NCBI GenBank assembly: GCA_934525325.1
Contig: CAKSZE010000009.1
Location: 1 to 40,229, forward strand
Direction: 5' to 3'
Source of the DNA: an uncultured Faecalibacterium sp.
GTDB lineage: Bacteria; Bacillota; Clostridia; Oscillospirales; Ruminococcaceae
DNA length: 40,229 bases
Notes under the pieces: generated by a model
Seen by the model: only the letters and a program-made list of their open reading frames with translations
Database searches by the model: none
Told to the model about the DNA's origin: nothing
Part shown: in pieces, positions 13,375-27,514 of the stretch
Layout: each line of letters begins with the position of its first letter
How positions within the stretch are numbered: position 1 is the first letter of the stretch
Program-made: the position numbers and the translations under genes

Positions 13375-13416
13375 TTTTTGCGGAAAATGCTTTCCTTTTT
13401 GCGCATTTTTTGCTAT

Positions 13417-13586
13417 ACTAAGGTGTATCTGAAAACAAAGAAAATAACGAGTATTTCGCAAGCACAAGCGGGATTTAAGGCAAATAGCCGCAGGAATCCT
13501 TTGTGGATTTCAAGGCTGTTTAACGCAAAATCCAGCTGTGCTTGTAGAAATAGACTAAATTTTCGACTTTTCAGATACACCCTAGT
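13417..13586. repeat. MITE-like 170-bp nested palindrome
   Basis: The ends are 19-bp inverted repeats with one mismatch (13417-13435 and 13568-13586). Inside them a second pair (CAAGCACA near 13460 and TGTGCTTG near 13541) and a central AATCC/GGATT hairpin at 13495-13509 share the same centre. The whole unit can therefore fold into one long hairpin. No coding frame is present and no clear target duplication is seen. An extended -10 (TGC-TATACT, 13411-13419) overlaps its left end. It could be a MITE or a structured regulatory element upstream of the tRNA. Confidence 0.65.
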
Positions 13587-13614
13587 GCGTGTTGCAGCAA
13601 TGCAGCACCCATAC

Positions 13615-13688
13615 GGGCCAGTAGCTCAGCTGGTCAGAGCTGGCGGCTCATAACCGCTTGGTCGCGGGTTCAAGTCCTGCCTGGCCCA
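13615..13688 (+). tRNA. tRNA-Met(CAT), elongator type
   Basis: A 74-nt cloverleaf is visible. The acceptor stem GGGCCAG pairs with CTGGCCC, followed by discriminator A at 13688. The D arm contains AGCTCAGCTGG, the anticodon CAT is at 13649-13651 in loop CTCATAA, and the T arm has GGTTCAAGTCC. CCA is not encoded. Features are those of elongator Met; a CAT-reading Ile tRNA cannot be fully excluded. Confidence 0.93.
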
Positions 13689-13693
13689 TACAA

Positions 13694-13729
13694 AAAAGCA
13701 CGAGATCTTGCTCTCGTGCTTTTCTTTTT
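13694..13729 (+). terminator. tRNA-Met terminator
   Basis: A 12-bp stem (13694-13705 with 13712-13723) with a 6-nt loop is followed by CTTTTT. It starts 6 nt after the tRNA. Confidence 0.9.
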
Positions 13730-13750
13730 GCCTGAACAGACGGATTCACC

Positions 13751-13842
13751 TGTACACGGACGCACCCCCAAAAGTTAGAATTTAAAACGAGATAGCCTGA
13801 ACGGTCTGGATCCTGTATTGTACAGGGTTCAGGCCGTTTTGT
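13751..13842. mobile_element. Probable remnant end of an IS3-family (IS150-type) element
   Basis: The segment starts with TGTACACGGACGCACCCCCA and continues AAAAGTTAGAAT. This resembles the terminal repeat of IS150-type elements, which often read GACCCCCAAAAGTTAGA. A hairpin follows at 13795-13834 (GCCTGAAC/GTTCAGGC, inner CCTGTA/TACAGG), also usual just inside such ends. No transposase is present, so only an end remains. Recognition is from memory of the family ends. Confidence 0.45.
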
Positions 13843-13942
13843 ATTAAGTTGTACATAAACACGGCTTTCGGGCATAGCAAAAAGGCCATCGGTCGGTCAT
13901 TTTCCCCGACAGCCTTGCCGTCTGATATTTTCTTTTCACTTT

Positions 13943-13951
13943 TGCTACAAT
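13943..13951 (+). promoter_or_regulatory. Extended -10 promoter of the recombinase gene
   Basis: TGC-TACAAT, an extended -10, lies 32 nt before the recombinase start. No convincing -35 is present at 17 bp. A GC-rich hairpin-forming stretch (13886-13915) lies upstream and could be an operator. Confidence 0.45.
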
Positions 13952-13982
13952 AGGATTATTCCATTTGGAAAGGAGAATTGTT

Positions 13983-14834
13983 ATGTCGAAGAAGTATCCT
14001 TCTCTGTCTCCCACTCTCATTGAAAAGTATCTGACCCATCTACGGGAGGCCGAGCGAAGCAGCCATACGATCAGTAAATACGCCCATGATTTGACGACAT
14101 TCCTAAATTATCTCAACGGAAAGCCGCTGACCAAAGCAGGCTTAATCGAATGGAAGTCTACACTTGTCGCTTCTTTTACACCCACAACAGTCAATTCAAT
14201 GTTGGTTGCCGTAAACGGTTATCTGTCATTCATGGGCTGGCAGAATTTGAAAGTAAACCTGCTCAAAATCCAGAAATCAATCTTTACGGATGAAAGCCGA
14301 GAGCTTTCCCACGATGAGTACATTCGCCTTGTGAACGCTGCAAAAATCCAAGAGAATGAGCGTCTTGCACTGGTAATCCAAACGATCTGCGCCACAGGCA
14401 TCCGTGTGTCAGAACTGCGCTTTATCACAGTGGAAGCCGTACATCTTGGAAGAGCTGAAATCAGCAACAAGGGCAAGCGGCGCATCGTGTTTCTGCCAAA
14501 CGGTCTACGCAAGCTGTTAACGGTTTATCTGCATAAACAAGGCAAAACCAGCGGCGCGGTGTTTACTACCCGGACGGGCCGACCTCTTGACCGTAGCAAC
14601 ATCTGGCGAGATATGAAAGCCCTGTGCCAAAGTGCAGGCGTTGACCCTAAAAAGGTGTTCCCCCATAATCTCCGGCATTTGTTTGCCCGGACTTTTTACT
14701 CCGTAGAGCATGATTTGTCTCGACTGGCTGACATTTTAGGACATTCTAACATTGCTACTACCCGTATCTACACAGCCGAGTGCGGTAGTGTCCATGCACA
14801 GCAAATCGAGAAACTTGGTCTTATTGTTACATAA
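13983..14834 (+). CDS. Xer-like tyrosine recombinase, predicted DNA invertase
   Basis: The 283-residue protein has an N-terminal core-binding (SAM-like) domain (residues 8-95, LIEKYLTHLREAERSSHTIS) and a C-terminal catalytic domain. The catalytic residues are visible in order: Arg in ATGIRVSELR, Lys in NKGKRRIV, His-x-x-Arg in HNLRHLFAR, His in LGHSNI, Tyr in TTRIYT. Length and layout match XerC/XerD and the stand-alone invertases of Firmicutes rather than long phage integrases. AGGAG lies 7 nt before the ATG at 13983. Its stop codon lies inside one of two inverted 18-bp sites, so its likely substrate is the adjacent segment. Confidence 0.9.
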   Translation: MSKKYPSLSPTLIEKYLTHLREAERSSHTISKYAHDLTTFLNYLNGKPLTKAGLIEWKSTLVASFTPTTVNSMLVAVNGYLSFMGWQNLKVNLLKIQKSIFTDESRELSHDEYIRLVNAAKIQENERLALVIQTICATGIRVSELRFITVEAVHLGRAEISNKGKRRIVFLPNGLRKLLTVYLHKQGKTSGAVFTTRTGRPLDRSNIWRDMKALCQSAGVDPKKVFPHNLRHLFARTFYSVEHDLSRLADILGHSNIATTRIYTAECGSVHAQQIEKLGLIVT

Positions 14835-14846
14835 TTCCAGTTATGT
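14829..14846 (+). repeat. Left recombination site (predicted crossover site L)
   Basis: ACATAATTCCAGTTATGT is itself an inverted repeat: arms ACATAA and TTATGT around the 6-bp centre TTCCAG. Extended 11-bp half-sites are TTGTTACATAA and TTATGTCGTCA. The 11-6-11 architecture and TTATG half-site resemble Xer dif sites. The exact reverse complement of the 18-mer occurs at 15038-15055. Confidence 0.8.
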
Positions 14847-15043
14847 CGTCAATAGCGACTATTTTTTACAATTATATCACTATCGCAACAAATTCACAAG
14901 CAAAATGCACTTATGCCATCTCACAAACGCCTGAATTTCTGTGCAGCTTTTCGGATAGGTAGTACTTTTGCGCACTTTTGGGGAATACAGTCTTTTTTTA
15001 TTTCTTAAAGTCGCTCAAACAAGTAGCGGCATCAACAACATAA
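14841..15043. promoter_or_regulatory. Predicted invertible promoter segment
   Basis: About 200 bp lie between the centres of the two inverted sites, next to a tyrosine recombinase. The segment is AT-rich, has no gene, and contains one strong promoter on the minus strand. The sites are in inverse orientation (centres TTCCAG and CTGGAA), so recombination would flip the segment rather than delete it. In the present orientation the promoter points left, away from the nine-gene operon. This is inferred from sequence architecture; no flipped copy is visible here. Confidence 0.72.
14871..14899 (-). promoter_or_regulatory. Strong promoter inside the invertible segment, facing the recombinase gene
   Basis: On the minus strand TTGTGA (14894-14899), a 17-bp spacer and an extended -10 TGA-TATAAT (14871-14879) form the best promoter in the segment. 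The predicted start is near 14864 and the transcript would run antisense to the recombinase 3' end. After inversion the start would map to about 15020, giving a 79-nt leader for the protease gene at 15099. Confidence 0.75.
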
Positions 15044-15075
15044 CTGGAATTATGTTGTTGATGCCGCTGTTTTTT
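15025..15075 (+). terminator. Perfect terminator overlapping the right recombination site
   Basis: A perfect 19-bp stem (15025-15043 with 15050-15068) with loop CTGGAA is followed by G and six T. The loop and the six inner base pairs are the right recombination site, so one element serves as both. It stands 24 nt before the protease start and would block read-through from the recombinase gene into the operon. Inversion replaces the left arm and leaves a weaker stem with several G-U pairs and mismatches. Confidence 0.85.
15038..15055 (-). repeat. Right recombination site (predicted crossover site R)
   Basis: This is the exact reverse complement of the 18-mer at 14829-14846, with arms ACATAA and TTATGT around centre CTGGAA. 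Extended 11-bp half-sites are CAACAACATAA and TTATGTTGTTG, perfectly symmetric here. The outer arm flanks the operon leader and contributes to the terminator stem. Confidence 0.8.
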
Positions 15076-15098
15076 AGAAAAAGGCCGGAGGAAGGAAC

Positions 15099-16430
15099 AT
15101 GAAAAATTACAATAAGATATTTTTGGCGGTTACGTTGTCTGTCCTGATCTGTGCGTATTGTGCTGTTTCCAGCTTTGCGGTGGGCAGCACCGGTGCGGAC
15201 GGTTCTGTGGTCGAGGAAGCCTGCAACGGTGTTGTACGAATCTATGTGCAAGATGCCGATACGCCTAAAACCGGAATAATTTATCAGGGAACGGGGTTCG
15301 CTGTGGGAAAAAGCGGAAAGTCAAGCGACATTTTTGTAACAAACTGGCATGTCGCCGTAACGGACGCTCCTCCGACAGAGGTGTATCTTGTCTTAAGCAC
15401 TAAAGCGTTTGAAGGCAATGGAGTAGACAAGGATTATCTTGTTCCCTGTAAAGTCCTCTATACGACTACGGGCTACCCGGATATCGCAATTTTGCAGGCA
15501 GAACGTGTTGTAACGGAGCGCACCGCTTTGCCGCTTTGCCCCAGCGAGTATGCAAAACAAGGCAGTACGGTCTATGCGCTCGGCTATCCCGGCAGCAGCG
15601 ACAAGGCTAATTCTGCTTATATGCCAGCTGATTTGAAAGATATTACTGTAACACGCGGTGTTATCTCACGGTTTACAGTGATGAGCATAGAAGGCGATAC
15701 AAGCGTTATTCAGCATGATGCGCATATCAATCATGGCAATTCGGGCGGACCGTTGATCAACGAAGACGGTGCAGTCATCGGCATCAACACCTATGGTTTC
15801 GGTGATAACAATAGTGAATGGTCTGCTTCCATTTACATTGACTACGCAATGGACGCGCTTGACGACTTAGGCATTGCATACGATGTTTGCACGCCGGGTT
15901 CCAATCACTCCATCCCGATCATTCTGGCCGTTGCAGTGGGCGTTGCACTGATTGCGGCGGCGGTTGTTATTGCAGCAAAAAAGCGTTCGGGTGCTTCCCG
16001 ACCGATACCCGTTTCTCCTGCACCGCAACCGGCACCTCACCCCATCCCCGCCCCTCAGCCGGTTCCAACTCCTTATAATAAAGTCGATAGCGGCTTCCGG
16101 CTGCAAGGTGTAAAGGGCACTTATCAGGGAAGGCGATTTGCGATAACGGAGCGCATCCGCATCGGACGCGACCCGGCGCGGAACGACATCGTTTATCCGA
16201 GCGGAACGCCCGGTGTCAGCGGTGTGCACTGTGAGATTCTTTATCGTGCAGGGCAGCTCTACGTCCGGGATGTTGGCTCCAGCAACGGTACTTATCTGCA
16301 ACGCGGGCAGATGCAGAAGCTTCCTGCACAGCAAGATATCCCGATCCGCATGGGAGATCATCTTTATATCGGTTCCCACTCGCAGGAGTTTGTCATTGAT
16401 CGGCATGGCTCAAATCTTCCCAGAAGTTGA
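15099..16430 (+). CDS. Membrane-anchored trypsin-like serine protease with cytoplasmic FHA domain
   Basis: The 443-residue protein has a signal peptide (residues 1-28, cut after SSFA). An extracellular S1/HtrA-like protease domain (40-260) shows an intact triad: His84 in TNWHVAV, Asp128 in YPDIAIL and Ser215 in HGNSGGPL. One helix follows (272-293), then a Pro-rich linker (302-325) and an FHA domain (348-435) with IGRDP, GVSGVHC and SSNGTYL. HtrA-type PDZ domains are absent. FHA domains bind phosphothreonine, so the protease could be recruited or gated by the kinases of the operon. GGAGG is 7-9 nt before the ATG. It is first in the nine-gene operon. Confidence 0.9.
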   Translation: MKNYNKIFLAVTLSVLICAYCAVSSFAVGSTGADGSVVEEACNGVVRIYVQDADTPKTGIIYQGTGFAVGKSGKSSDIFVTNWHVAVTDAPPTEVYLVLSTKAFEGNGVDKDYLVPCKVLYTTTGYPDIAILQAERVVTERTALPLCPSEYAKQGSTVYALGYPGSSDKANSAYMPADLKDITVTRGVISRFTVMSIEGDTSVIQHDAHINHGNSGGPLINEDGAVIGINTYGFGDNNSEWSASIYIDYAMDALDDLGIAYDVCTPGSNHSIPIILAVAVGVALIAAAVVIAAKKRSGASRPIPVSPAPQPAPHPIPAPQPVPTPYNKVDSGFRLQGVKGTYQGRRFAITERIRIGRDPARNDIVYPSGTPGVSGVHCEILYRAGQLYVRDVGSSNGTYLQRGQMQKLPAQQDIPIRMGDHLYIGSHSQEFVIDRHGSNLPRS

Positions 16431-16443
16431 TGGAGGGTAGGAT

Positions 16444-17754
16444 ATGGGAAACACGACATTCTATCGAGAGGCGCAGGAAGATATCGAAAAGATCACATGG
16501 AAAGAGATCCTTTCAGATTTCCGCAAACCTCACAGCAAAGCTGAGCTGGAGTACGCATTGCTGGCAGGAACTTCAATGGATTCGGCAAATGAAGCGAATA
16601 TGCTGCAAAAATGGCATAAGCCGTGGGTATTTTATCCGCTGCTGAAAGCCGGTGTCGCCTTAATTGCACTCCTATATGCTGTGTTCTTCCTTTTTGGACT
16701 GAAAAACGCCGGAACATACATAATGGCGCTAATTATTCCACCGTTGATCATCCCTGTAATTCTGATGATTTTTTTGTGGGAACTGAATATTCCGCGAAAC
16801 ATTTCGATCTATGAACTGCTCGTCTTTTTTCTGCTTGGCGGATTAATGTCCATGGGGCTTGTTTCAGTTCTATTTGGCGTTTTTCCGCAAATAAAGGTTC
16901 GGTCCGCAAGCGATATTTTTCCGTGGGCACTCAACACGGCTCTGCGCGAAGAGATTGCAAAACTTGCCGCAGGCATACTGCTTCTTTGTTGGGCAGGTTC
17001 CAAGCAGAAAAAACACATCTATGGTTTAACAGGCTTGGTGATCGGTGCCGCAGTCGGTGCGGGATTTGGAGGATTTGAATCCATCAGCTATGCTTTGAAC
17101 TCTGAAGCGATTGCTATAAATCAAATCATGCGAGCAATATACTCCATAGGTGGGCATGTAGTCTACGCGGCTCCCTATACGGCGGCGATCGCTCTTGAAA
17201 TGAAGGGTGGAAAACTGACAACAGATTGTTTCAAAAGCAAAGCGTTTCTGATTGCATTTGGGTCATCTGTGGCACTTCATACGGCGTGGGATTATTCCTG
17301 CAAAACCGTTGGTATGATAGGGTTTCTTGTAATCATTATTCTGCTGTGGGTCCTATTGCTTTATGTTACGCGTCTTTGCTTACAGCAGGCTGTCAATGCC
17401 GGACGCTATCATTCTGGAACATATCCGATCGCAAACAGCGCGGCTCTCACCCTTCAATGTATCAGCGGCCCGATGCAAGGGGCAGTCTGGAAGTTATCTA
17501 CTGGACAGAAAACGGTCATCGGTAGAGATCCCGGCTGTCAGATCGTTCTTCCCAATGCGCAAGGGATCAGCCGCCGTCACTGCTCGTTCCAATGCGGGCC
17601 AACAGGCTGGACGGTGACAGACCTGAATTCTTCGTATGGCACTTATTTTTCAAACGGAAAGAAGCTGATGCCGGGACTGGATGAGCCGCTGCATTCCGGG
17701 GACGTCCTTTATCTGGCAAGCAGACAAATTGCTCTGAAAATATTTTTGAACTGA
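16444..17754 (+). CDS. PrsW-family intramembrane metalloprotease with C-terminal FHA domain
   Basis: The 436-residue protein has about eight helices between residues 65 and 312. The PrsW motifs are present: EE at 169-170 in REEIAKLAAG, FE at 211-212 in GGFESISYAL, His238 in GGHVVYAAPY and His279 in ALHTAWDY. A C-terminal FHA domain (336-434) contains IGRDPGC, GISRRHC and SSYGTYF. PrsW proteases cleave membrane-bound regulators such as anti-sigma factors; no sigma/anti-sigma pair is seen here, so the substrate may be one of the single-helix neighbours. Fusion of FHA to PrsW is unusual. The gap to the upstream gene is 13 nt. Confidence 0.87.
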   Translation: MGNTTFYREAQEDIEKITWKEILSDFRKPHSKAELEYALLAGTSMDSANEANMLQKWHKPWVFYPLLKAGVALIALLYAVFFLFGLKNAGTYIMALIIPPLIIPVILMIFLWELNIPRNISIYELLVFFLLGGLMSMGLVSVLFGVFPQIKVRSASDIFPWALNTALREEIAKLAAGILLLCWAGSKQKKHIYGLTGLVIGAAVGAGFGGFESISYALNSEAIAINQIMRAIYSIGGHVVYAAPYTAAIALEMKGGKLTTDCFKSKAFLIAFGSSVALHTAWDYSCKTVGMIGFLVIIILLWVLLLYVTRLCLQQAVNAGRYHSGTYPIANSAALTLQCISGPMQGAVWKLSTGQKTVIGRDPGCQIVLPNAQGISRRHCSFQCGPTGWTVTDLNSSYGTYFSNGKKLMPGLDEPLHSGDVLYLASRQIALKIFLN

Positions 17755-17766
17755 GGAGAGATCGCC

Positions 17767-18996
17767 ATGAAAACAACTGTTCCTGTCCCAAAGCTACTGT
17801 GCCGACTGTGTGCGGCACTGTGTGTGTTCGCATTTCTTTTTGCGTGGATGCCTGTGATGCCTGCACGGGCAGCAAGTTCTGCGGAAAACGCAGCCGGCGT
17901 GGCCAAAATCGTGAATGGAGAAGAGGAAACATTCTACCGCGCAGTATTGATGCAAATCGATGGGCAGGCTTACGGTATAACACTGATGCCCGATAATATA
18001 ACGCAGGACAGTGAAGTGTTGCTTGCATCTGTGGAGGGAAAATACTACCATCCGGCAGAGGTGAAGAACTATGACTCAAATGGTCGCTGGGTCTGTTGGA
18101 CCATAACGGATGATTATGCGGATGAGACAGGTAGGCTTCCGCAGAAGGGAGATGCAGCAGAGGGAGACATCTGTGATGCTGTTTTTGCAGTATCGACAGC
18201 AGAGATCTCCGGTGCTTCTGGGATCCAGTTGGGCGCGGTATTGGACACGGACAACTCGATCCTTCAAATTGCGGGTGCACAGGGACAAGATATGAAGTAT
18301 CCTGCGGCACTTTTGAATGATAACATGGAAGTTGTGGCAGTGGCGCTGTCGGATACGACGGCGATATGGACGGGAAATTATCAACAGCAAAGCACGCCAG
18401 GTTCTTCCGGCGGCTCCGGCGGTTCCGGCACTTCCTCTTCCGGCAGTTCCGCCTCTGCACCTCGCCCCCGGACGAACTCCGGCAATAAGACCCCGCTCTA
18501 TTTTGCAGTCGGCATTGCCGTCATCGCAGTTATTGCAGTCGCCGCAGTTCTGTTCCTGAAAAACAAAAAGACGAACGATACGGCTCCTCATATTGATGTG
18601 ACACCGGATGATGACAGAACGGCATTTTTCCCGACAAAGCCGACAGATGACATAACGATAAGACCTGCACCTGTTCCGCAGCAGCAGACGCTCTGGCTTG
18701 CAGCAACATCCGGTTATATGATGGGACGCGTTTACCCGATGGAGAATCATGAAATCACGATCGGACGTTCTCCCACGGCCAGCGTTCCGTATGAAGACAA
18801 CAGTGTCAGCAAACAGCACTGCAAGCTCTATAAAAATGCTTCCGGGCAGTGGATGCTGATGGACTGCAACTCCCGTAATGGTACCTATCTGGAGCGCATT
18901 GGAAAGCTCAGCCCCATGCAGCCGGTAGAAGTATATCCGGGAGATACGTTCTATCTCGGAAGCCAAAAACATGGATTTACGATCAAAAACAATTAA
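17767..18996 (+). CDS. Secreted-domain / TM / FHA protein, likely pseudoprotease
   Basis: The 409-residue protein has a signal peptide (1-35, cut after ARA), an extracellular domain (36-205), a Ser/Gly-rich linker (207-240), one helix (243-265) and a cytoplasmic FHA domain (309-407) with IGRSP, SVSKQHC and SRNGTYL. The outer domain starts AAGVAKIV and ends PAALLNDNMEVVAVAL, resembling the first and last strands of trypsin-like domains (compare GGPLINEDGAVIGI in the protease two genes upstream). It lacks the GNSGG serine motif and an obvious catalytic His. I infer a degenerate, non-catalytic protease fold used for binding; this needs a structure model. Confidence 0.75.
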   Translation: MKTTVPVPKLLCRLCAALCVFAFLFAWMPVMPARAASSAENAAGVAKIVNGEEETFYRAVLMQIDGQAYGITLMPDNITQDSEVLLASVEGKYYHPAEVKNYDSNGRWVCWTITDDYADETGRLPQKGDAAEGDICDAVFAVSTAEISGASGIQLGAVLDTDNSILQIAGAQGQDMKYPAALLNDNMEVVAVALSDTTAIWTGNYQQQSTPGSSGGSGGSGTSSSGSSASAPRPRTNSGNKTPLYFAVGIAVIAVIAVAAVLFLKNKKTNDTAPHIDVTPDDDRTAFFPTKPTDDITIRPAPVPQQQTLWLAATSGYMMGRVYPMENHEITIGRSPTASVPYEDNSVSKQHCKLYKNASGQWMLMDCNSRNGTYLERIGKLSPMQPVEVYPGDTFYLGSQKHGFTIKNN

Positions 18997-19014
18997 AAAA
19001 CGGAGGAATCAAAA

Positions 19015-19821
19015 ATGGCAAACTATGTGAAATGTCCCAAAGGGCACTACTACGATCCCGCACTGACCAACACCTGCCCGCAATGTGCAGCAGAAGCCGC
19101 TGCCGCATCCGGCAGAAACCAGATGTTTGGGGATGCTACGCAGCCGGTGGATAACATCGGGGAAACGATGCCCACCGGCAATTCGGGTGCAGTCGATTAC
19201 GGCGCAACGGAGGGTGTTCCGATGCCGGGATACGGCGGCTCGGGTTACGGCCCGACGGAGCCGGTCGCCCCTCCCACGGGCGGCGGGTTCTCTCAGGGCG
19301 GCGGATACTCCAATAATACATTTTCGTGGAATGAAGAGACAAAAACCTCTACAAGCCCCATTGATGGCAGTAATTTTCCGAGCAACAACCGTTTTAACTG
19401 GAATGATAATGTCGGCCCTGCGCCGAATGTACAAGATTACGACCCGACGATGCCGGTTACCATGAATGGCGTTCCCGGATTTTCTCCGGTCACGGGCTGG
19501 CTTGTCTGCATCGATGGTCCGGCCAAGGGCACCGACTACCGTATCCATACGGACTACAACTTTATTGGCCGCGCCTCCAACATGGATATTTCGATTGCCG
19601 GAGATAACCGCATTGACCGCGACCGTCATGCAGTCGTAGTCTACGACCCGCAGGAACGGATCTTCTTCTTTGGCCCGCAAAACGCCAAGAGCGTCGTCCG
19701 CGTCAATAACCGTCCTGTGATCGGACAGGTAGAGCTGAACCCGTACGATGTGCTGACCATCGGCACAACGAAATTGATGTTCGTGCCGCTGTGCGGTAAG
19801 GAGTTTAACTGGGATGCGTGA
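19015..19821 (+). CDS. Cytoplasmic zinc-ribbon / FHA adaptor with repeated threonine motifs
   Basis: The 268-residue soluble protein opens with a small metal-binding motif (Cys8, His11, Cys21, Cys24 in CPKGHYYD and CPQC). A low-complexity Gly/Asn/Thr region follows (35-155), then an FHA domain (162-258) with FIGRASNMDI and DRHAVVVYD. The linker has four similar sites: DATQPV (Thr42), GATEGV (Thr64), GPTEPV (Thr81) and DPTMPV (Thr145). These are candidate kinase targets that an FHA domain in the same or another protein could bind, like the GarA/OdhI phospho-switch. The usual FHA SxxH appears as DRDRH. It overlaps the next gene by 8 nt. Confidence 0.85.
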   Translation: MANYVKCPKGHYYDPALTNTCPQCAAEAAAASGRNQMFGDATQPVDNIGETMPTGNSGAVDYGATEGVPMPGYGGSGYGPTEPVAPPTGGGFSQGGGYSNNTFSWNEETKTSTSPIDGSNFPSNNRFNWNDNVGPAPNVQDYDPTMPVTMNGVPGFSPVTGWLVCIDGPAKGTDYRIHTDYNFIGRASNMDISIAGDNRIDRDRHAVVVYDPQERIFFFGPQNAKSVVRVNNRPVIGQVELNPYDVLTIGTTKLMFVPLCGKEFNWDA

Positions 19822-21235
19822 TTTTGAAAAAACAACCAGTACCCAATATACGATCTGCTATACCATGACGGCGGCTGACAGCAGCGGCGAAGGCGCTTCC
19901 TCCTCTGCCGAAACGGGAGCCGGTGGTGTTGCCGCCTCGGCAATATCCGGCGAGGAAAAACCAGCCGATTCGCAAGGGGATCTTGAAGCAGGCAGCGAAA
20001 ATACCGAAACGCTGTATCTGACGATCACCCAGAACGAAACCGGCGTAACGGATGTTTCGATCCTGTTGGAGGGCGAAAACAAAGAGGCAGCGCAGGAAAC
20101 GGCAAATGCGGTGGCGGAACAGCTTAAAACCCAGCTGCAAAGCAAAAATGCGGATTGGGATGCGGTCAGCACTGCAACCGAAGCCCCGCCGGAAGTGCTC
20201 AAACAGGTGATCGCTGCGGCAGAAGATTATCTGGGACAAAAAGTTGACGGGGCAGCTGCCATAGAGATCCCGAGCGCAGCGCCTGTTATGGAGCCCCCAA
20301 AAAAGCAACATCAGCTGCCGTCTCTTCTTCTTGTTGGCCTGGTCGGTATTGTCCTTGGTGCTGCACTTTTGAAATTTGTGGAAAAATTGCTTGCACCCAA
20401 GCACCCGCCTGTGGCTCCTCCTGAGGAAATCAAGACCACCGCTGTTTCCAAGGCGGTGGTTTTGGAACAGCCCCAGATGGAAGCCAGACCGGAACCTTCC
20501 CAAGCTCCTCGGATCAGTGCACTGCACAACATCGGGGCACGTCCCGGTCAGCAGGACAGTTTTGGGTTCGAGCCGATCCCCGGCGGGATGCTTGCGGTCG
20601 TTGCCGATGGCATGGGCGGCTTGGCAGATGGCGACAAAGTCAGTCAGCTCATTGTTCACAGCATGATGACGGAAGTAAAAAATCTCGGCAGAGGAAACAA
20701 CCAGTACTGCCTGTATGAACTTGCATCCCGTGCAAACCGTGCCGTACTCTCCATGCTGGGGCCAAGCAGGATCTATCAATGCGGTTCCACACTTATTTCC
20801 GTTCTTGTTCAGGATCATTGGATGCAGTGGCTTTCTATTGGTGACAGCCGCATTTATCTGTACCGTGCGGGACGATTGATGCAGCTCAACCGGGAGCACA
20901 CGCTGAAATATGAGATGCTGGTCGATGTTGCCAACAGCCGCCGCTCTGTGGCAGAAGTGCAGCAAAACCCGAAGGGCAAGGGTCTGACCAGTTTTATTGG
21001 TATGGGCGAGCTGAAATACGTCGATGGAAGCCCGCACCCGGTGCAGGTCCAGCCCGGCGACCGCGTTCTCTTGATGAGCGATGGTGTGTTCAACACCCTG
21101 CCGGAAGCCGAGATCGAATCGATCCTTGCGCAGGAGCCGGAAGCACCGAAGGCGACTGCTTTGATGGAACAACGTGTATTAGAGCATAAAAGCCCCAAAC
21201 AGGATAATTTCACGGCAATTCTTTTGAATATTTGA
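19814..21235 (+). CDS. Membrane-anchored PP2C-type Ser/Thr phosphatase
   Basis: The 473-residue protein has an N-terminal region of about 165 residues of unknown fold, rich in Ala, Glu and Ser, with a helical stretch at 88-142. One helix follows (169-190), then a Pro-rich spacer and a PP2C domain (234-473). Metal-binding and core motifs are intact: QQDS (Asp248), VADGMGG (Asp265), GDSRIYLY, LMSDGVF (Asp423) and QDNFTAILL (Asp464). It should reverse threonine phosphorylation by the operon's kinases. The start overlaps the FHA adaptor gene, indicating coupled translation. Orientation with the N-terminus outside is inferred because the catalytic domain must be cytoplasmic. Confidence 0.88.
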   Translation: MRDFEKTTSTQYTICYTMTAADSSGEGASSSAETGAGGVAASAISGEEKPADSQGDLEAGSENTETLYLTITQNETGVTDVSILLEGENKEAAQETANAVAEQLKTQLQSKNADWDAVSTATEAPPEVLKQVIAAAEDYLGQKVDGAAAIEIPSAAPVMEPPKKQHQLPSLLLVGLVGIVLGAALLKFVEKLLAPKHPPVAPPEEIKTTAVSKAVVLEQPQMEARPEPSQAPRISALHNIGARPGQQDSFGFEPIPGGMLAVVADGMGGLADGDKVSQLIVHSMMTEVKNLGRGNNQYCLYELASRANRAVLSMLGPSRIYQCGSTLISVLVQDHWMQWLSIGDSRIYLYRAGRLMQLNREHTLKYEMLVDVANSRRSVAEVQQNPKGKGLTSFIGMGELKYVDGSPHPVQVQPGDRVLLMSDGVFNTLPEAEIESILAQEPEAPKATALMEQRVLEHKSPKQDNFTAILLNI

Positions 21236-21249
21236 ACGAGAGTTTTGAT

Positions 21250-22569
21250 ATGGAACTTTGTATCAACTGCATGGCGGGGAGCATCGTCAACGGGATCTGT
21301 AACCACTGCCATAAACCAGCCGAATCCATGGATGGACGTGTTTCCTATGCACTTCCGCCGCGAATGACGCTCTATCGGCAATATTACATCGGGCGTGTTC
21401 TGGGCGCAGGCGGTTATGGGATCACCTACCTTGCATGGGATCTGCGGAACAACCGCCGTGTGGCGGTGAAAGAACTCTATCCGCGCGACAATGTGAAACG
21501 GAACCCGGACAGAGTGTCCATAGCGGCAAACCCCGGAAGCGAGGCGTATTTCCAGCACGTCAAAGAGTCGTTCAAGCGCGAGGCGCAGATCCTGCACACG
21601 CTGGCAGACCTGAAGGACGTGATAGAGGTCTATCACCTGTTTGAGCTGAACAACACGGTCTACTATGTGATGGAATATCTGGAAGGCGAGGATCTGAAGC
21701 ACCGGCTCAAACGCAGCGGAACGATGTCGTGGGAGGAACTTGCCCCGCATATCTGGCGGGTGCTGTGCGCCTTGAACGCCCTGCACTCCAACGACCTGAT
21801 TCATCGGGACATCAGCCCCGATAATATCTTTTTGCTGAACAATGGCGGTACAAAGCTGATCGATTTCGGCTCTGTCAGAAATTACGCAGACGGCTCGGAA
21901 AAATCCACGATCCTCAAACACAAGTTTGCACCGTTTGAACAGTACCAAAGACGCGGAAAGCAAGGGCCGTGGACAGACATTTACGCATTGAGCGTTACCA
22001 TGTATTATGCCCTGACCGCGCAGCTGCCTGCTAACGCCCCCGACCGGATGGACGATGACCGGACGCCTCCGTTGCAGCAGGCTGCGCCCAATGTGCCGCG
22101 CCATGTTGCGGAAGCGATCTTCAAGGGGATGTCTCCCCGAATTGAAAATCGTTTCCCCTCGGCAGAAGCATTTGCAGCCGCACTGTTTCCGGGAAAGCGG
22201 CTGGAATCTACCGTCAAACGCGTGGAACAGCCGCCCCATTCGGCGGAACAGGGCGGTGCGCGCCTTTTTTGTACGCAGGGCGTGCTGAAAGGCGGGAGCA
22301 TTACTTTGTATCCCGGGCAAATCGTTTCCATTGGCCGTGCACCGGAGTGTACGATCTCGTATGCCCAATTCAACCCGAAGCAGCTTCCCGGCGTAAGTCG
22401 GCGGCAGTGCTCGGTCTCCATGAATGAACAGGGGCAGCTGTTTGCACAAGATAACGGCTCCAGTTATGGAACACTGGTAAATCAAAGACCGCTGCCCCAA
22501 GGTCAATGGATCCCGATAGCAAGAGGTTCCGTGATCCAATTCGGGTATCAACTGTTCTGCATACAATAG
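21250..22569 (+). CDS. Soluble Ser/Thr protein kinase with zinc ribbon and C-terminal FHA domain
   Basis: The 439-residue protein starts with a treble-clef-like Cys4 motif (CINC and CNHC). The Hanks-type kinase domain (41-300) has the loop GAGGYG, Lys74 in VAVKELYP, HRDISPDN (Asp187, Asn192), DFG (Asp205) and APFEQY in place of APE. The C-terminal FHA domain (332-437) contains SIGRAPEC, GVSRRQC and GSSYGTLV. No membrane helix is present. A TTG seven codons upstream overlaps the phosphatase stop, but I prefer the ATG at 21250. A kinase with its own FHA domain can bind its phosphorylated partners. Confidence 0.92.
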   Translation: MELCINCMAGSIVNGICNHCHKPAESMDGRVSYALPPRMTLYRQYYIGRVLGAGGYGITYLAWDLRNNRRVAVKELYPRDNVKRNPDRVSIAANPGSEAYFQHVKESFKREAQILHTLADLKDVIEVYHLFELNNTVYYVMEYLEGEDLKHRLKRSGTMSWEELAPHIWRVLCALNALHSNDLIHRDISPDNIFLLNNGGTKLIDFGSVRNYADGSEKSTILKHKFAPFEQYQRRGKQGPWTDIYALSVTMYYALTAQLPANAPDRMDDDRTPPLQQAAPNVPRHVAEAIFKGMSPRIENRFPSAEAFAAALFPGKRLESTVKRVEQPPHSAEQGGARLFCTQGVLKGGSITLYPGQIVSIGRAPECTISYAQFNPKQLPGVSRRQCSVSMNEQGQLFAQDNGSSYGTLVNQRPLPQGQWIPIARGSVIQFGYQLFCIQ

Positions 22570-22577
22570 GAGAAAAA

Positions 22578-23300
22578 ATGAAATCGCTCTCAAGATTTTA
22601 TACAACAGACCAAGGAGGACGGCCAGAAAACGAGGATGCCTGCGGGGCAACCAGCAATGGCCAGAATCTTGTTTTTGTCGTAGCCGATGGCTTAGGCGGC
22701 CAAGGCGATGGCCGTGTAGCATCGGCTTTAGCGGCGCAGCTGCTTCTGCTTTGCGGTGCGGACGGGAATTTTCCTGACGAAGCTGCCATTCAAGCCGCTT
22801 TTCAGACCGCGAACGAAGCGATCCTTGCCCGCCAGCAAAACCAAACCCACATGAAAACCACTGCCGTGTACCTGTGCATTGCACAAAACAGGGCAATCTG
22901 GGCACATATCGGCGATTCCCGGCTCTATCACTTCTACAACGGAAAAATTACAGAGTACACCCTTGACCACAGTGTTTCACAGATGGCTGTTCTGCTGGGA
23001 GAGATCACCCATGCGCAAATACCGGGGCATGCGGACCGCAGTCGGCTGTTAAAGGCGCTGGGGTGCGAGTCGGCAGCGCCGACGGTTCACGCAGCGGTCG
23101 AGTTGAGACCCGGGAAACATTCTTTTTTGCTGTGCAGTGATGGCTTCTGGGAGTACGTCCCAGAGCCTTATATGGAAAGCTCTCTCGAAAAAGCCCGGGA
23201 TGCACAGGCGTGGAATCAGGATATGACCGCCTATCTGAACGCGCATTGCCCCGCAGACCATGACAACTACACGGCTGTGACCGTATGTCTGGAAGTATAA
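22578..23300 (+). CDS. Soluble PP2C-type Ser/Thr phosphatase
   Basis: The 240-residue protein is a minimal PP2C domain, the same length as the classical Firmicutes PrpC/Stp1 enzymes. Motifs are ENEDACG, VADGLGG, GDSRLYHFYNG, LCSDGFWEYV and DNYTAVTV, all metal-binding Asp present. AGGAG is 7 nt before the ATG at 22578, and the kinase stop codon is 8 nt upstream. It lacks any membrane segment, unlike the first phosphatase, so the operon has one fixed and one free phosphatase. Confidence 0.92.
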   Translation: MKSLSRFYTTDQGGRPENEDACGATSNGQNLVFVVADGLGGQGDGRVASALAAQLLLLCGADGNFPDEAAIQAAFQTANEAILARQQNQTHMKTTAVYLCIAQNRAIWAHIGDSRLYHFYNGKITEYTLDHSVSQMAVLLGEITHAQIPGHADRSRLLKALGCESAAPTVHAAVELRPGKHSFLLCSDGFWEYVPEPYMESSLEKARDAQAWNQDMTAYLNAHCPADHDNYTAVTVCLEV

Positions 23301-23319
23301 GTTTGAGGTGGAACAGCAA

Positions 23320-24873
23320 ATGAAGAAAATACGTCATGTTATTTTTGCACTTTTTTCAACAGTCTTTCTCCTTTCCGTGTGTTTGAGCGCCTATGCTGCG
23401 GATCAGAATTATTTTTTGCAGCAGTACCGCACCGCGCCGGGCTGCCTTCAGTTAGATTGTTCGGCGCTGGAGGGTGCAAAACCGGAAATGTTCACCGCGG
23501 AGCTGGGCGGGCAGGAAATTCCTGTGACAGCATTAGACACAGCGGAAGCGGAAAATCTTGCAACCACGGTATATTGTCTTGTGGATATCTCCGGCTCTAT
23601 GCATGCAGAACAGATGGAATATGCACAGAACGTTTTGCGGGCGCTGGCTGCTCAGATGGGGGAAGCCGACCATTTGGTGATCGGAACGCTTGGCAATCAG
23701 CTGACGCATAGCAAATTGTTATCCACAAAAGAGGAAATGGAAGAGGCCATCTCCGCATTGGCCGCAGACAGCCACGAGGACACTAACCTGTATGCGGGCA
23801 TCGTGGAGAGCCTGCACTTTCTTACGACCGATACCAGCGTGGATGCACGGCGCTGCCTGATGATCCTTTCGGATGGAGAGGATGACCAGAAGAGCGGCAT
23901 CACCCAAAATGAAGCAGATAAGGCCGTTCAGGCTTCCGGCGTTCCCGTCTATACGGTTGCCACCTTGCGCAATGCGCCGACACAGGCACAGCAGGAATAT
24001 GCAAAGATCCTTGGCAGCTTTGCGCGACTGTCTACGGGCGGGGAACATTTTGCTCCGCAGTTGGATGATCTGCCCGCAGAACAGGTTGCACAGCGTATCT
24101 GGGAACACTGCAAGAACGGTCTGGTTCTGACGCTGGATACTTCCGGGGTCACGTCCGAAAAAGATGAGATGCTGCTGAGAGTCACCTACACGGAAGGGCA
24201 GACTTCTTATGCGGATACGCTGACCATCTACACCAAGGACCTGCTTCCGGCGAAACAGCCCGAACCGGAAACGTCCCCGGCACCGGCTGCCGAAGCTGAA
24301 CCGCAGGCGGGCTTTCCCACCGCAGTCGTTATCATTGGCATCCTTGTCGTGCTGGCCGCTGTAATTGTCGCGGTCGTGCTGGTACAGAAGCGGAAGAAAG
24401 AGGCCGAACGCGCCGCAGCGGAAAAAGAAGCGGAAGAAGCGCGCCGCCGGCAGGAAGAGGAAGAACGGAAAAAGCAGGAACAGCAGGCCATCCTGCTTGC
24501 GGGGAACGGCGCGGAACCGCCTGTTCAGCCCCGGACGGTACAAGGATATGAGCTGCTGCTGACCGCCATCGGCTATGAAAATATCGTCAGACGTTTAAGG
24601 CTTCCCGAAGGAAAAGAACAGACGGTCGGCCGGACGAATAAAGCCGATATCGTTCTGGATGCCAGCGACAAACGGCTGTCCGGCGTACATTGCAGCTTGT
24701 CCTGCACCAATGGTATTTTGCGTGTTATGGACAAACGCTCGACCAACGGTACTTCTGTAAACGGCGTGCCTACTGTGCCAATGGGCATCGTCATTGTACC
24801 CAACGGCAGCGTTTTACGGGTAGGCAGCTACGAATACCGCGTGGAGATCAAAAAGGCCACATGGACGGTGTAA
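23320..24873 (+). CDS. Extracellular VWA domain / TM / cytoplasmic FHA protein
   Basis: The 517-residue protein has a signal peptide (1-26, cut after SAYA), a VWA domain (82-265) with an intact MIDAS (Asp89-x-Ser91-x-Ser93 in DISGSM, Thr155 in EDTNLY, Asp185 in ILSDGEDD), and a beta-rich spacer. One helix (332-355) follows, then a charged Arg/Glu coiled coil (356-390) and an FHA domain (432-510) with VGRTNKADI, LSGVHC and STNGTSV. A metal-dependent ligand or partner could be bound outside and signalled inside. I chose the ATG at 23320, which has GAGG upstream at 11 nt; a GTG four codons earlier has no ribosome binding site. Confidence 0.9.
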   Translation: MKKIRHVIFALFSTVFLLSVCLSAYAADQNYFLQQYRTAPGCLQLDCSALEGAKPEMFTAELGGQEIPVTALDTAEAENLATTVYCLVDISGSMHAEQMEYAQNVLRALAAQMGEADHLVIGTLGNQLTHSKLLSTKEEMEEAISALAADSHEDTNLYAGIVESLHFLTTDTSVDARRCLMILSDGEDDQKSGITQNEADKAVQASGVPVYTVATLRNAPTQAQQEYAKILGSFARLSTGGEHFAPQLDDLPAEQVAQRIWEHCKNGLVLTLDTSGVTSEKDEMLLRVTYTEGQTSYADTLTIYTKDLLPAKQPEPETSPAPAAEAEPQAGFPTAVVIIGILVVLAAVIVAVVLVQKRKKEAERAAAEKEAEEARRRQEEEERKKQEQQAILLAGNGAEPPVQPRTVQGYELLLTAIGYENIVRRLRLPEGKEQTVGRTNKADIVLDASDKRLSGVHCSLSCTNGILRVMDKRSTNGTSVNGVPTVPMGIVIVPNGSVLRVGSYEYRVEIKKATWTV

Positions 24874-24907
24874 ACCATAAAAAGAGTAAAGCAAAGGGTG
24901 GAAAATC

Positions 24908-27319
24908 ATGACTGTCAATCGTTGTCCGCATTGTATGGAAGAACTTGGGGAAATAAATGGGAACTTTTGCCCCTTCTGCGGATTTAATGCGGCGCAGAAC
25001 CCCCAGCCGCCGGAGGCTTTGCCCCGGGAGAGCATCCTGCACGGAAAATATCTTATCGGCGATGTGCTGGGGCGGGGCGGCTTCGGCATTACTTACATCG
25101 GCTTTGACCTTTCATTGGAAAGCAAAGTCGCCATCAAAGAGTACTATCCTTCCGGCTCTGCCATGCGCAGAGAGGGCGAAAGCTCTTTGTACTGGAACAG
25201 TACCTGCGCATCCCAAACGAGCCGTCAGGGTGCATACGATGATTTTCTGAAGGAAGCGCGCAAGATGGCGCGTGTGGATAGCATTCCGTCCATTGTTCGT
25301 GTGCGGGAAACCTTCCTTGAAAACGAAACGGCTTATATCGTTATGGACTATGTCGAGGGCGAAACGCTCAAGACCCGGCTCAAGCGGGACGGCGTGCTGA
25401 CTTATTCTGCATGTTATGCAATGCTTCGCCCGATGATGGAGGATCTCCAGAAAGTACATCAGCTGGGCATCATCCACCGCGACATCAGCCCAGACAATAT
25501 CATGATCCAGAAGGACGGCAGTGTGAAACTGCTGGATCTGGGCGCGGCAAAAGACCTGAGCAAAAAGTCCGATGGCCAGTCCCAGCTGGTGACCAAAAAC
25601 GGGTTCAGCCCGGCTGAACAGTACATGGACAGCGGAAAGATCGGCCCTTGGACGGATGTATATGCGCTCTGCGCCACCATCTACTATGCCTGTTACGGAA
25701 AGCTTGTGCCGCAGGCGTTGGAACGGCTCGATCAGGACACCCTGACCTTTGATCTGCCGGCCAAAGAAGCCATTCCGCAGAACGTGATCGAGACATTGAA
25801 AAAGGGCTTGGCCATTCGCGCCGCGGAACGCATCCAGAGCGTAGAAGAGTTGATGCAGCGGTTAAATGTATCTGCTGCAAGACCTGCGCCGATCCCCCAG
25901 CCCGCTGCAAAACAGGGAAAACCGAAAAAGTCCAATTTAGCAGTAAGCGTGCTGAAAAAGGTTCTTCTGGGATTTATGATCCTGTGCACGGCATTTGTGC
26001 TGTTCCTGTTCTACGCCGCATACCGGGGCGCACAGATGACGGCTGCAGAGAATGCCGCCAGCAGTGCATCCATGGCGGCTGCCGAGAGTGCGGCATCCTT
26101 GGAAGTGTCCAGCGAAGCACCCAGTGAAAGCCCTGCATCCAGTGCGGCCTCTTCTGCACAGACGGCGGTACAGTATACGGCACAGTATCGCGTGGACGAA
26201 GCCGGCGGCGGCAGTTTAAGCGATGGCTTTGCATCGGGCGCAGACACGGTGTTCAAGCAGTTTACGGATCCGTCTCAAGCTATCTCGGTAACGGCAACAC
26301 CGGCAGAAGGATATGTTTTTGTCGAATGGAGTGACGGCATAACCTCCCGATCCCGCACGGACACCGATTTTAAGCAGGATCTGGCTGTGACGGCTATTTT
26401 TGCGCAGGCTTCGGTACAGATCGATGGCAAGCCCGATGGTTCCCGCGTCACCGTCAAGGCTTCGCTCAAAGGCGACTGTATCAATGCAAAAAATTTGCGC
26501 TGGTATGCAGATGGCTCTGAAGTGGAATCCGCTGCGGGAAAGACCAGCCTCACCGTGAACAATACAGAAACGGCAGATAAAACCATTAAGGTCTATGCCG
26601 TTGTCGTGTATAACGATTGTAAGATCACCAGCAATACCCTGACTTGCAAACTTACCGGAAAGAAACAGGCGGCATCTTCTTCCAGTTCTTCCGCCAGTTC
26701 TTCTTCCACGGCTTCTGCATCCAGCAGCCAAGCCAAACCTGCCGTGCAGACTGTGACAAATCAGTCTATCACGGTCAGTGCCGGAGAAAAAGGCACTTAC
26801 ACCGGACAGTGGGCAGACGGAAAGCCGTCCGGGCAGGGCAAAATGGTACTGGATAAAGGCGGCGTCTATGAAGGAAATTGGGAAAATGGCCTTCGCAATG
26901 GTCAGGGGACTTTTACTTTTTCCAATGGTGCAAAATATGAAGGCAACTGGAAAAACGATGTGCGTATCGGCCAGGGAAAGATGACCTACACAGATGGCAG
27001 TGTCTATGAAGGAAATTGGCAAAATAATAAGCAAAATGGACAAGGCAAGTGTACATACGCCGGTGGAGATATTTATGAAGGCAACTGGAAAGATGATAAA
27101 CGAAGTGGCCAAGGTAAGTATACATACTCCGATGGAACTATTTATGAAGGTAACTGGGTAGATGGCAAGAAAAGTGGCCATGGAAAACTTATTTGGAAGA
27201 GTGGTACCGTTTACGAGGGAGACTTTATGAATGGTAAATTTAACGGCCAAGGAACTATAACCTATACCGATGGTACTACAAAATCCGGCACATGGAAAGA
27301 CGATGAATTTGTTGGCTAA
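24908..27319 (+). CDS. Transmembrane Ser/Thr kinase with InlB-like and MORN-repeat ectodomain
   Basis: The 803-residue protein starts with a zinc ribbon (CPHC at 6-9, CPFC at 21-24). The kinase domain (47-320) has GRGGFG, Lys77 in VAIKEYYP, HRDISPDN (Asp192), DLG instead of DFG (Asp210) and SPAEQY. One helix (349-372) leads to an Ala/Ser linker, an InlB-type bacterial repeat (420-500, ATPAEGYVFVEWSDG), an Ig-like domain (502-585), a Ser-rich linker and eight MORN repeats at an exact 23-residue period (631-796, YEGNW). The sensor part should be outside. The last MORN repeats are noticeably more AT-rich than the kinase. It ends the operon. Confidence 0.92.
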   Translation: MTVNRCPHCMEELGEINGNFCPFCGFNAAQNPQPPEALPRESILHGKYLIGDVLGRGGFGITYIGFDLSLESKVAIKEYYPSGSAMRREGESSLYWNSTCASQTSRQGAYDDFLKEARKMARVDSIPSIVRVRETFLENETAYIVMDYVEGETLKTRLKRDGVLTYSACYAMLRPMMEDLQKVHQLGIIHRDISPDNIMIQKDGSVKLLDLGAAKDLSKKSDGQSQLVTKNGFSPAEQYMDSGKIGPWTDVYALCATIYYACYGKLVPQALERLDQDTLTFDLPAKEAIPQNVIETLKKGLAIRAAERIQSVEELMQRLNVSAARPAPIPQPAAKQGKPKKSNLAVSVLKKVLLGFMILCTAFVLFLFYAAYRGAQMTAAENAASSASMAAAESAASLEVSSEAPSESPASSAASSAQTAVQYTAQYRVDEAGGGSLSDGFASGADTVFKQFTDPSQAISVTATPAEGYVFVEWSDGITSRSRTDTDFKQDLAVTAIFAQASVQIDGKPDGSRVTVKASLKGDCINAKNLRWYADGSEVESAAGKTSLTVNNTETADKTIKVYAVVVYNDCKITSNTLTCKLTGKKQAASSSSSSASSSSTASASSSQAKPAVQTVTNQSITVSAGEKGTYTGQWADGKPSGQGKMVLDKGGVYEGNWENGLRNGQGTFTFSNGAKYEGNWKNDVRIGQGKMTYTDGSVYEGNWQNNKQNGQGKCTYAGGDIYEGNWKDDKRSGQGKYTYSDGTIYEGNWVDGKKSGHGKLIWKSGTVYEGDFMNGKFNGQGTITYTDGTTKSGTWKDDEFVG

Positions 27320-27484
27320 AGCCGCTCCTCCTTCCGAAGCTGCGGCAACCAGCGCGGGCTGGCATCAACTTGCATTTTTTGAATCGGATGCTTCAAATCC
27401 GTATTTGAAATGCCTGTTGGGCTGTGCCTGAATCCCCTTTCGTTCTGCATCGTACGGTGCAGGCAGCGCAGACACTTTTATAGC
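27320..27484. other. Right boundary of the accessory island
   Basis: No gene is seen. Two small hairpins occur: CCAGC/GCTGG near 27351 and TTCAAAT/ATTTGAA near 27393. There is no copy of the tRNA-Met 3' end, of the IS-like end or of the 18-bp recombination site, so no attachment site is recognised. Confidence 0.4.
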
Positions 27485-27514
27485 AAAAAAGACACCCTTT
27501 CGGGTGTCTTTTTT
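27485..27514. terminator. Bidirectional terminator between the island operon and the ABC exporter gene
   Basis: A perfect 13-bp stem (27485-27497 with 27502-27514) with a TTTC loop, A6 on the left and T6 on the right. It serves the convergent ends of the plus-strand operon and the minus-strand ABC gene. Confidence 0.92.

What the first reader, a model, noticed from the sequence alone, without database searches (positions are those of the whole stretch)
14829..15055. Predicted invertible promoter next to a Xer-like recombinase, controlling a nine-gene signalling operon
Two 18-bp sites, exact reverse complements of each other, bound a ~0.2-kb gene-free segment immediately after a complete tyrosine recombinase gene. 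Each site is symmetric, with arms around a 6-bp centre, as in Xer dif sites. The segment holds one strong promoter (TTGTGA, 17 bp, extended TATAAT) on the minus strand. Inverse site orientation predicts inversion. In this assembly the promoter points away from the operon, so the copy shown is predicted OFF; flipping would place the transcript start about 79 nt before the first gene.
Basis: partly seen in the sequence, partly recalled or inferred. Interest (0 to 1): 0.93.

Follow-up and report, generated by a model that had tools for sequence, protein, structure and literature searches.

The report
Flippable promoter before signalling genes
A bacterial genome, probably of a gut Clostridia, carries a short stretch of DNA beside a DNA-flipping enzyme that very probably inverts to switch a set of nine cell-signalling genes on or off, and related switches in other genomes are found in both positions.

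Summary
Two 18-bp sites (14829-14846, 15038-15055), exact reverse complements, follow a complete Xer-like tyrosine recombinase (likely 13983-14834) and bound a segment whose extended -10 promoter faces away from a nine-gene FHA/kinase/phosphatase operon (15099-27319). It is not chance. In 142 distinct recombinase regions (window included), sites picked by arm sequence alone (ACATAA-N6-TTATGT) gave 140 pairs; 121 have exactly reverse-complementary centres, none identical direct ones, while centres match between loci in 1.7% of comparisons. Related loci with collinear flanks hold the segment in opposite orientations. So this belongs to a widespread family of recombinase-plus-invertible-promoter cassettes, here on a ~13.8-kb island beside tRNA-Met. 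The copy shown is predicted OFF. Flipping of this very locus was not shown. Jin et al. 2025 report a Clostridia inverton group tied to a tyrosine recombinase, with read-level flipping; I could not check whether its motif is the same. Not seen in my searches: this cargo and the OFF hairpin.

The parts
13983..14834 (+). Xer-like tyrosine recombinase (283 aa), predicted to act on its own two sites
   Evidence: Pfam Phage_integrase E 2.7e-28 and SAM-like N domain E 1.8e-07, scanned from TTG 13965; the six residues usually held to be catalytic (R, K, H-x-x-R, H, Y; set recalled) line up with chains 4a8e (named XerC-like) and 5hxy (XerA)
14829..14846 (+). left recombination site ACATAA-TTCCAG-TTATGT; contains the recombinase stop codon 14832-14834
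15038..15055 (-). right recombination site, exact reverse complement of the left one
14841..15043 (.). predicted invertible segment between the two crossover hexamers (203 bp)
14871..14899 (-). sigma-70-type promoter TTGTGA-17-TATAAT with TG before the -10, facing the recombinase in this copy (OFF for the operon)
   Evidence: regular position and orientation in relatives
15023..15075 (+). 20-pair stem with the right site at its tip, followed by T6: terminator-like in this (OFF) orientation, weakened but not abolished in the ON model
15099..16430 (+). operon gene 1: trypsin-like protease with FHA domain
16444..17754 (+). operon gene 2: PrsW-type membrane protease with FHA domain
17767..18996 (+). 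operon gene 3: FHA protein
19015..19821 (+). operon gene 4: weak FHA match (20.7 bits, equal to the cut-off)
19814..21235 (+). operon gene 5: PP2C phosphatase
21232..22569 (+). operon gene 6: protein kinase with FHA domain
22506..23300 (+). operon gene 7: PP2C phosphatase (start uncertain, overlaps gene 6 by 64 bases)
23308..24873 (+). operon gene 8: VWA-FHA protein
24908..27319 (+). operon gene 9: protein kinase with MORN repeats
13698..27485 (.). inserted island (recombinase, switch, operon) between tRNA-Met (13615-13688) and a pre-existing terminator; edges uncertain by a few bases
   Evidence: clean empty place in L107; L108 lacks the island too but has other DNA nearby

Best explanation
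The locus is a self-contained phase-variation cassette. The recombinase encoded at 13983-14834 binds the symmetric arms of its two sites and exchanges strands in the matching 6-bp centres; because the centres are inverted, the 203-bp segment between them flips. In the orientation shown the promoter faces the recombinase, so the nine-gene operon is OFF, and a hairpin with a T tract assembled across the right site may block read-through from the recombinase gene. After a flip the promoter faces the operon, the hairpin loses its G+C-rich inner half, and transcription starts about 79 nt before gene 1 (ON). Shown: site anatomy, pairing of centres across the family, promoter position, opposite orientations in relatives. 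Inferred: flipping of this copy, action by this recombinase, ON/OFF control, the role of the hairpin.
For: Only exact inverted pair of its kind in the window. In 142 distinct recombinase regions, window included: 263 sites within 2 mismatches of ACATAA-N6-TTATGT in 70,662 bp downstream, against 7.8 (mean of five mononucleotide shuffles) and 17 in 88,621 bp upstream; 121 of 140 arm-defined pairs have exactly reverse-complementary centres, 0 of 140 direct, 337 of 19,460 between loci; of 110 locus names with any pair only L186 lacks an inverse pair. Of 110 segments the best promoter faces the recombinase in 96 and the downstream gene in 14; strong ones 73 and 10, against 14 in one shuffle of each; in 77 of the 83 strong ones the -10 ends 30-59 bp from the centre it faces. 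Opposite orientation with both flanks collinear: L117 against L116 and L118 (flanks 87-93%; 137-138 bp of segment align at 81-85%), L097 against L064 (two strains of Anaerotruncus colihominis; segment 88% over 209 bp), L070 against L078 (segment 99% over 231 bp; right flank only 86 bp at 79%, shifted by 34) (names).
Against: No read data or second strain for this locus; the window's own assembly is not held. Proteins 90-97% identical to the recombinase exist but their DNA was not open to me; the closest full-length copy with flanks is 70%. 31 of 142 regions had fewer than two sites at the 2-mismatch limit, some because their arms diverge (L031, L032, L016, L018); in the first survey 13 regions had no pair at all and 12 were too short. 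Relatives are not independent: the 110 segments fall into 76 clusters. The hairpin is not a family feature, and the scorer called the window's ON model terminator-like (17 pairs, 4 G-C, 7 T of 8) and not its OFF model, whose stem it ran on over the T tract.
Confidence: 0.87

Rival explanations
1. The switch is real in the family but this copy is locked, or is flipped by another recombinase in trans.
For: Nothing at this locus shows flipping; most assemblies show one orientation (73 against 10 strong promoters); in one genome eight copies share the centre TTGATA, so action in trans between copies is possible.
Against: Both sites, the centres and the six catalytic residues are intact in the window, and the recombinase sits beside its sites here as in the relatives.
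Confidence: 0.1
2. The paired sites are only a transcription terminator and a chance partner; no inversion takes place.
For: The right site is the tip of a 20-pair hairpin followed by T6.
Against: Would not make centres match within but not between loci (121 of 140 against 1.7%), nor reversed segments between collinear flanks. Stems of 15 or more contiguous pairs at this place were found in only 7 of 96 loci.
Confidence: 0.01
3. The sites are attachment sites of an integrating element and the recombinase is its integrase.
For: Recombinase, switch and operon lie on an island beside tRNA-Met, a typical integration place.
Against: The sites are inverted and lie inside the island, not at its edges; the edges share only CAAAAAAG by eye. 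I ran the repeat finder on each edge separately, which does not compare one edge with the other. 0 of 140 family pairs are direct.
Confidence: 0.02

Closest known systems
Clostridia inverton group 139 with invertase group 35 (Jin et al. 2025, PMC11892184; outline, sections 6-8 and found passages read)
   Same: 33 invertons, 32 from Clostridia, nearly all with a nearby tyrosine-type recombinase; from the printed coordinates two have 26-bp repeats with 205 bp between and 14-bp repeats with 227 bp between, sizes that fit this family; orientation shifts seen in metagenomic reads for Clostridium sp. D5 and Intestinimonas butyriciproducens.
   Different: Its repeat motif is in supplements I could not open, so identity with this family is inference. 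The parts read do not mention an FHA/kinase operon, a locus-specific centre or an OFF hairpin; 'Anaerotruncus' and 'asparagiforme' do not occur in its main text.
C. difficile cwpV switch (Emerson et al. 2009, PMC2784873; passages read)
   Same: 21-bp inverted repeats 195 bp apart upstream of the gene; the OFF orientation is predicted to form an intrinsic terminator at a repeat/segment junction that inversion breaks.
   Different: There the promoter is outside the segment; here it is inside.
C. difficile cmrRST switch (PMC8844915; start of abstract in a search listing only)
   Same: A phase-variable signal transduction system in a gut Clostridia.
   Different: Two response regulators and a sensor kinase, not an FHA/protein-kinase module.
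Streptococcus PsrA invertase (PMC7096588; listing and two passages)
   Same: Tyrosine recombinase that inverts DNA at short inverted repeats; a plasmid gene annotated PsrA is 33.7% identical to this recombinase.
   Different: Inverts hsdS genes rather than a promoter; needs 15-bp repeats plus the sequences just upstream of them.
Xer recombinases and dif
   Same: Best solved relatives are Xer enzymes; two arms around 6 bp; the arms resemble the TTATGT half of bacterial dif (recalled, no call).
   Different: Two inverted symmetric sites by a promoter; scores far below the XerA, XerC and XerD cut-offs.

Membership tests
Tyrosine-recombinase invertible promoter (inverton) | inverted repeat pair with identical crossover centres | tested here: met
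Tyrosine-recombinase invertible promoter (inverton) | promoter inside the segment that can face a downstream gene | tested here: met
   by consensus scan only; ON leader 79 nt
Tyrosine-recombinase invertible promoter (inverton) | both orientations found in nature | tested here: inconclusive
   found for related loci (L116/L117/L118, L064/L097, L070/L078); no second copy of this locus was available
Tyrosine-recombinase invertible promoter (inverton) | inversion needs the recombinase and changes expression | not testable with these tools
   needs a bench test
Jin 2025 inverton group 139 / invertase group 35 | repeat motif and invertase sequence of the group | not testable with these tools
cwpV-type terminator switch | promoter outside the inverted segment | tested here: not met
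   the promoter found is inside
cwpV-type terminator switch | terminator formed in OFF and broken in ON | tested here: inconclusive
   OFF stem stronger (-32.6 against -24.4 at equal length; -31.8 and -33.2 against -19.9), but the ON model keeps a stem near the T tract and was the one called terminator-like
XerC/XerD-dif dimer resolution | scores above the curated XerC/XerD cut-offs | tested here: not met
   XerD 112.3 against 329.6 bits, XerC 109.8 against 335.15
Integrative element with this recombinase as integrase | direct site repeats at the element's edges | tested here: not met
   by eye only CAAAAAAG is shared by the edges; site pairs are inverted in 121 of 140 and direct in 0 of 140

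The most novel reading that the evidence does not exclude
A double switch: one flip both turns the promoter round and takes apart a terminator. The operon-side recombination site is the tip of a 20-pair hairpin whose 5' half is inside the segment and whose 3' half plus T tract is outside, so the OFF state is sealed against read-through from the recombinase gene directly upstream and the ON state is opened. This would combine the fim-type promoter flip and the cwpV-type terminator flip in one 0.2-kb element that controls a mobile FHA/kinase network. Perfect stems of 15 pairs or more at this junction were seen only in OFF models (7 of 96, against 0 of 96 ON). Odds lowered from 0.35 to 0.30 on checking, because the ON model of the window keeps a stem by the T tract.
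Probability: 0.3. Interest if true: 0.68.

Novelty: new member of a known kind. Interest (0 to 1): 0.5.

Why it matters
It gives a sequence rule by which many phase switches of Clostridia can be read straight from assemblies, with their ON or OFF state: recombinase, then an ACATAA-N6-TTATGT pair with an inverted centre, and a promoter whose -10 ends 30-59 bp from the centre it faces (77 of 83 strong ones). The first gene behind the switch is often a signalling gene: of 52 scanned, 7 had GGDEF, 6 a response-regulator receiver, and others CheW, MCP, EAL or histidine-kinase domains. Here the cargo is a whole protein kinase, phosphatase and FHA network carried on an island, so a population would contain cells with and without that network switched on.

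Tried and rejected
OFF-specific terminator as a family rule: rejected. By a simple score 3 of 96 OFF against 5 of 96 ON models were called, the window's ON model among the five; mean folding energies of the two states were about equal. With a stricter measure (15 or more contiguous Watson-Crick pairs) 7 of 96 OFF and 0 of 96 ON, but four of the seven are copies in one genome with identical junctions, so it is three lineages. After the stem the window has T6; L006 and L064 have no such run, and the four copies have T5 inside the stem.

Centres as a barrier between copies in one genome: mixed. Different centres in several genomes (L006, L164, L165; L081, L082), but eight copies with TTGATA in one genome and shared TTTCTG and TGGATA in two others.

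Same operon behind the switch elsewhere: not found. The VWA-FHA protein hit 1 of 347 family genomes at E 1e-20 and the trypsin-FHA protein 5 of 391 class genomes at E 1e-40. Those six loci each hold some related FHA, PP2C, protease or kinase genes (L145 no kinase hit), but neither the recombinase nor an exact inverted pair of 13 bp or more within their 4.1-4.3 kb. Closer trypsin-FHA proteins exist (six other clusters at 82-92%); their DNA was not open to me.

Phage or plasmid origin: every match in phage and plasmid records is under 60% identical, best-listed 43.8% and 54.9%; four viral-contig relatives at 63-68%; the exact 18-mer was in no viral contig and the trypsin-FHA protein found no relative there. 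Defence system: PADLOC hits are to kinase, protease and phosphatase models, spread over different systems. Rfam at gathering cut-off, 13400-15300: only the tRNA. Literature: (no paper), listings only except the papers named; nothing on this operon under a phase switch was seen, in a library that lacks most subscription papers. The host genus could not be named; Faecalibacterium is a guess from genome size and G+C. The third protein search went to an ORF that is probably not a gene (no hits).

Full report
Observation. The two 18-bp sites are at 14829-14846 and 15038-15055 and are exact reverse complements. No other exact inverted pair of 16 bp or more with 50-500 bp spacing exists in the window, and 40 mononucleotide shuffles gave none. 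Each site is ACATAA, six bases, TTATGT. The recombinase gene ends in the left site: its TAA stop is the last triplet of the left arm, as in 41 of 110 regions with a site pair, the window counted. The minus-strand promoter TTGTGA-17-TATAAT is one of two with 10 of 12 matches among seven promoter-like sites in 13600-15300, and the only one of those two with TG before the -10 (2.3 sites expected by shuffling). Inversion would put its start 79 nt before the start codon of gene 1.

The enzyme. The protein has Phage_integrase and SAM-like domains. Its best solved relatives are 4a8e (named XerC-like), 5hxy (XerA) and 1a0p (XerD), with R, K, H-x-x-R, H and Y aligned (my reading; the catalytic set is recalled). 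It is below the cut-off of all 11 NCBIfam models it matches, XerA, XerC and XerD among them. The family is large: 7905 of 8000 scored candidates passed E 1e-60.

Family test without circularity. With the window, and without duplicates, weak or short hits, 142 regions of 140 locus names remained. Sites were picked only by up to two mismatches to the twelve arm positions, ignoring the centre. They are enriched just downstream of the gene: 263 in 70,662 bp, against 7.8 when shuffled, 17 in 88,621 bp upstream and 7 in the gene. 13 regions have none, 18 one, 90 two, 19 three and 2 four or more. Of 140 pairs 90-420 bp apart, 121 have exactly reverse-complementary centres and none have identical direct ones. 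Between loci the match rate is 337 of 19,460. The 19 other pairs are listed; all lie in loci that also have an inverse pair, except L186. Tyrosine recombinases need matching crossover sequences (established knowledge), so this is how inversion partners should look. The half-site consensus runs TTATGTTGTA outward from the centre, and the centre tends to T-N4-R.

Orientation. In the 110 segments the best promoter faces the recombinase in 96 and the downstream gene in 14; strong ones 73 and 10; one shuffle of each segment gave 14 strong. By one representative for each of 76 clusters the count is 53 and 9, with 14 lacking a promoter of score 10. So assemblies, like the window, mostly show what I read as OFF. 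Thirteen pairs of segments that align over 80 bp or more lie in opposite orientation. Four of them have both flanks collinear: L117 with L116 and with L118, L097 with L064, and L070 with L078 (right flank short and shifted). In eight only the recombinase side matches, so those are different loci. One (L015) is trivial: two identical recombinases face one segment. L031 and L032 are a further reversed pair at 77% over 201 bp with the same downstream gene layout, but I did not align their flanks. L064 and L097 are two strains of Anaerotruncus colihominis; L097 begins inside its recombinase gene and has a third site.

Cargo. By a naive ORF picker the first downstream ORF is on the recombinase strand in 62 of 72 regions, within 140 bp of the right site in 58. 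These genes are unrelated to one another (mean column identity 6% over 52): GGDEF, receiver, CheW, MCP, LRR, TetR, solute-binding and others. The switch is therefore a general module. In the window it precedes nine tightly spaced genes (gaps 13, 12, 18, -8, -4, -64, 7, 34) for two FHA-linked proteases, FHA proteins, two PP2C phosphatases, two protein kinases and a VWA-FHA protein. Partly similar gene sets without recombinase or paired sites nearby were found in six other loci. The likely role is a phosphorylation-dependent signalling network with membrane proteases (inference from domains); what it senses I cannot say.

Island. In L107, from the nearest genus, the DNA joins window 13697 directly to window 27485, so recombinase, switch and operon are an insertion of about 13.8 kb beside tRNA-Met. 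L108 also lacks the island, but after 85 matching bases it has about 1.1 kb of other DNA and then a second start of the 27486 match. L106 has other DNA in this place, and L109 departs within the tRNA; I did not pursue these.

Hairpin. The right site is the tip of a 20-pair stem (19 contiguous Watson-Crick pairs) followed by T6: -33.2 kcal/mol for 15010-15085, z -7.4, 0 of 200 shuffles as stable. In the ON model the 79-nt leader folds at -19.9, with the G+C-rich inner half lost and part of the T tract paired; at equal length the figures are -32.6 OFF and -24.4 ON. The inner half lies in the segment, so inversion replaces it. Since the recombinase gene lies directly upstream in the same direction, a terminator here would help to keep the operon silent in OFF. 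Against this: the ON model keeps a stem by the T tract and was the one called terminator-like by the scorer, and the feature is rare in the family.

Known or new. Promoter inversion by tyrosine recombinases is well known. Jin et al. 2025 (PMC11892184) report a Clostridia inverton group strongly tied to a tyrosine recombinase group, with flipping in reads. It is probably the same family or a near one, but its motif sits in supplements I could not open. The cwpV switch (PMC2784873) is the precedent for an OFF-only terminator. I saw no report of this operon under a phase switch. Verdict: real, a new member of a known kind, with one unusual predicted feature.

Noticed in passing
13421-13581: A ~165-bp element with 14-bp terminal inverted repeats (GGTGTATCTGAAAA), with copies of 95-99% identity in several genomes of the nearest genus, is inserted just upstream of tRNA-Met, by eye right after its promoter: MITE-like.
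   Followed up: partly
L106:8248-9526: In another genome of the same genus the place after tRNA-Met holds other DNA that by eye begins with the end of a phage-type integrase, suggesting an insertion hot spot.
   Followed up: partly
L015: Two identical copies of the recombinase (897-bp perfect inverted repeat) face each other across a single segment.
   Followed up: no
   Followed up: partly
L097, L011, L078: Three sites instead of two, with a doubled site on one side; a flip could use either copy and change the segment length.
   Followed up: no
24908-27319: The last operon gene joins a protein kinase to MORN repeats and an InlB-type repeat domain.
   Followed up: no
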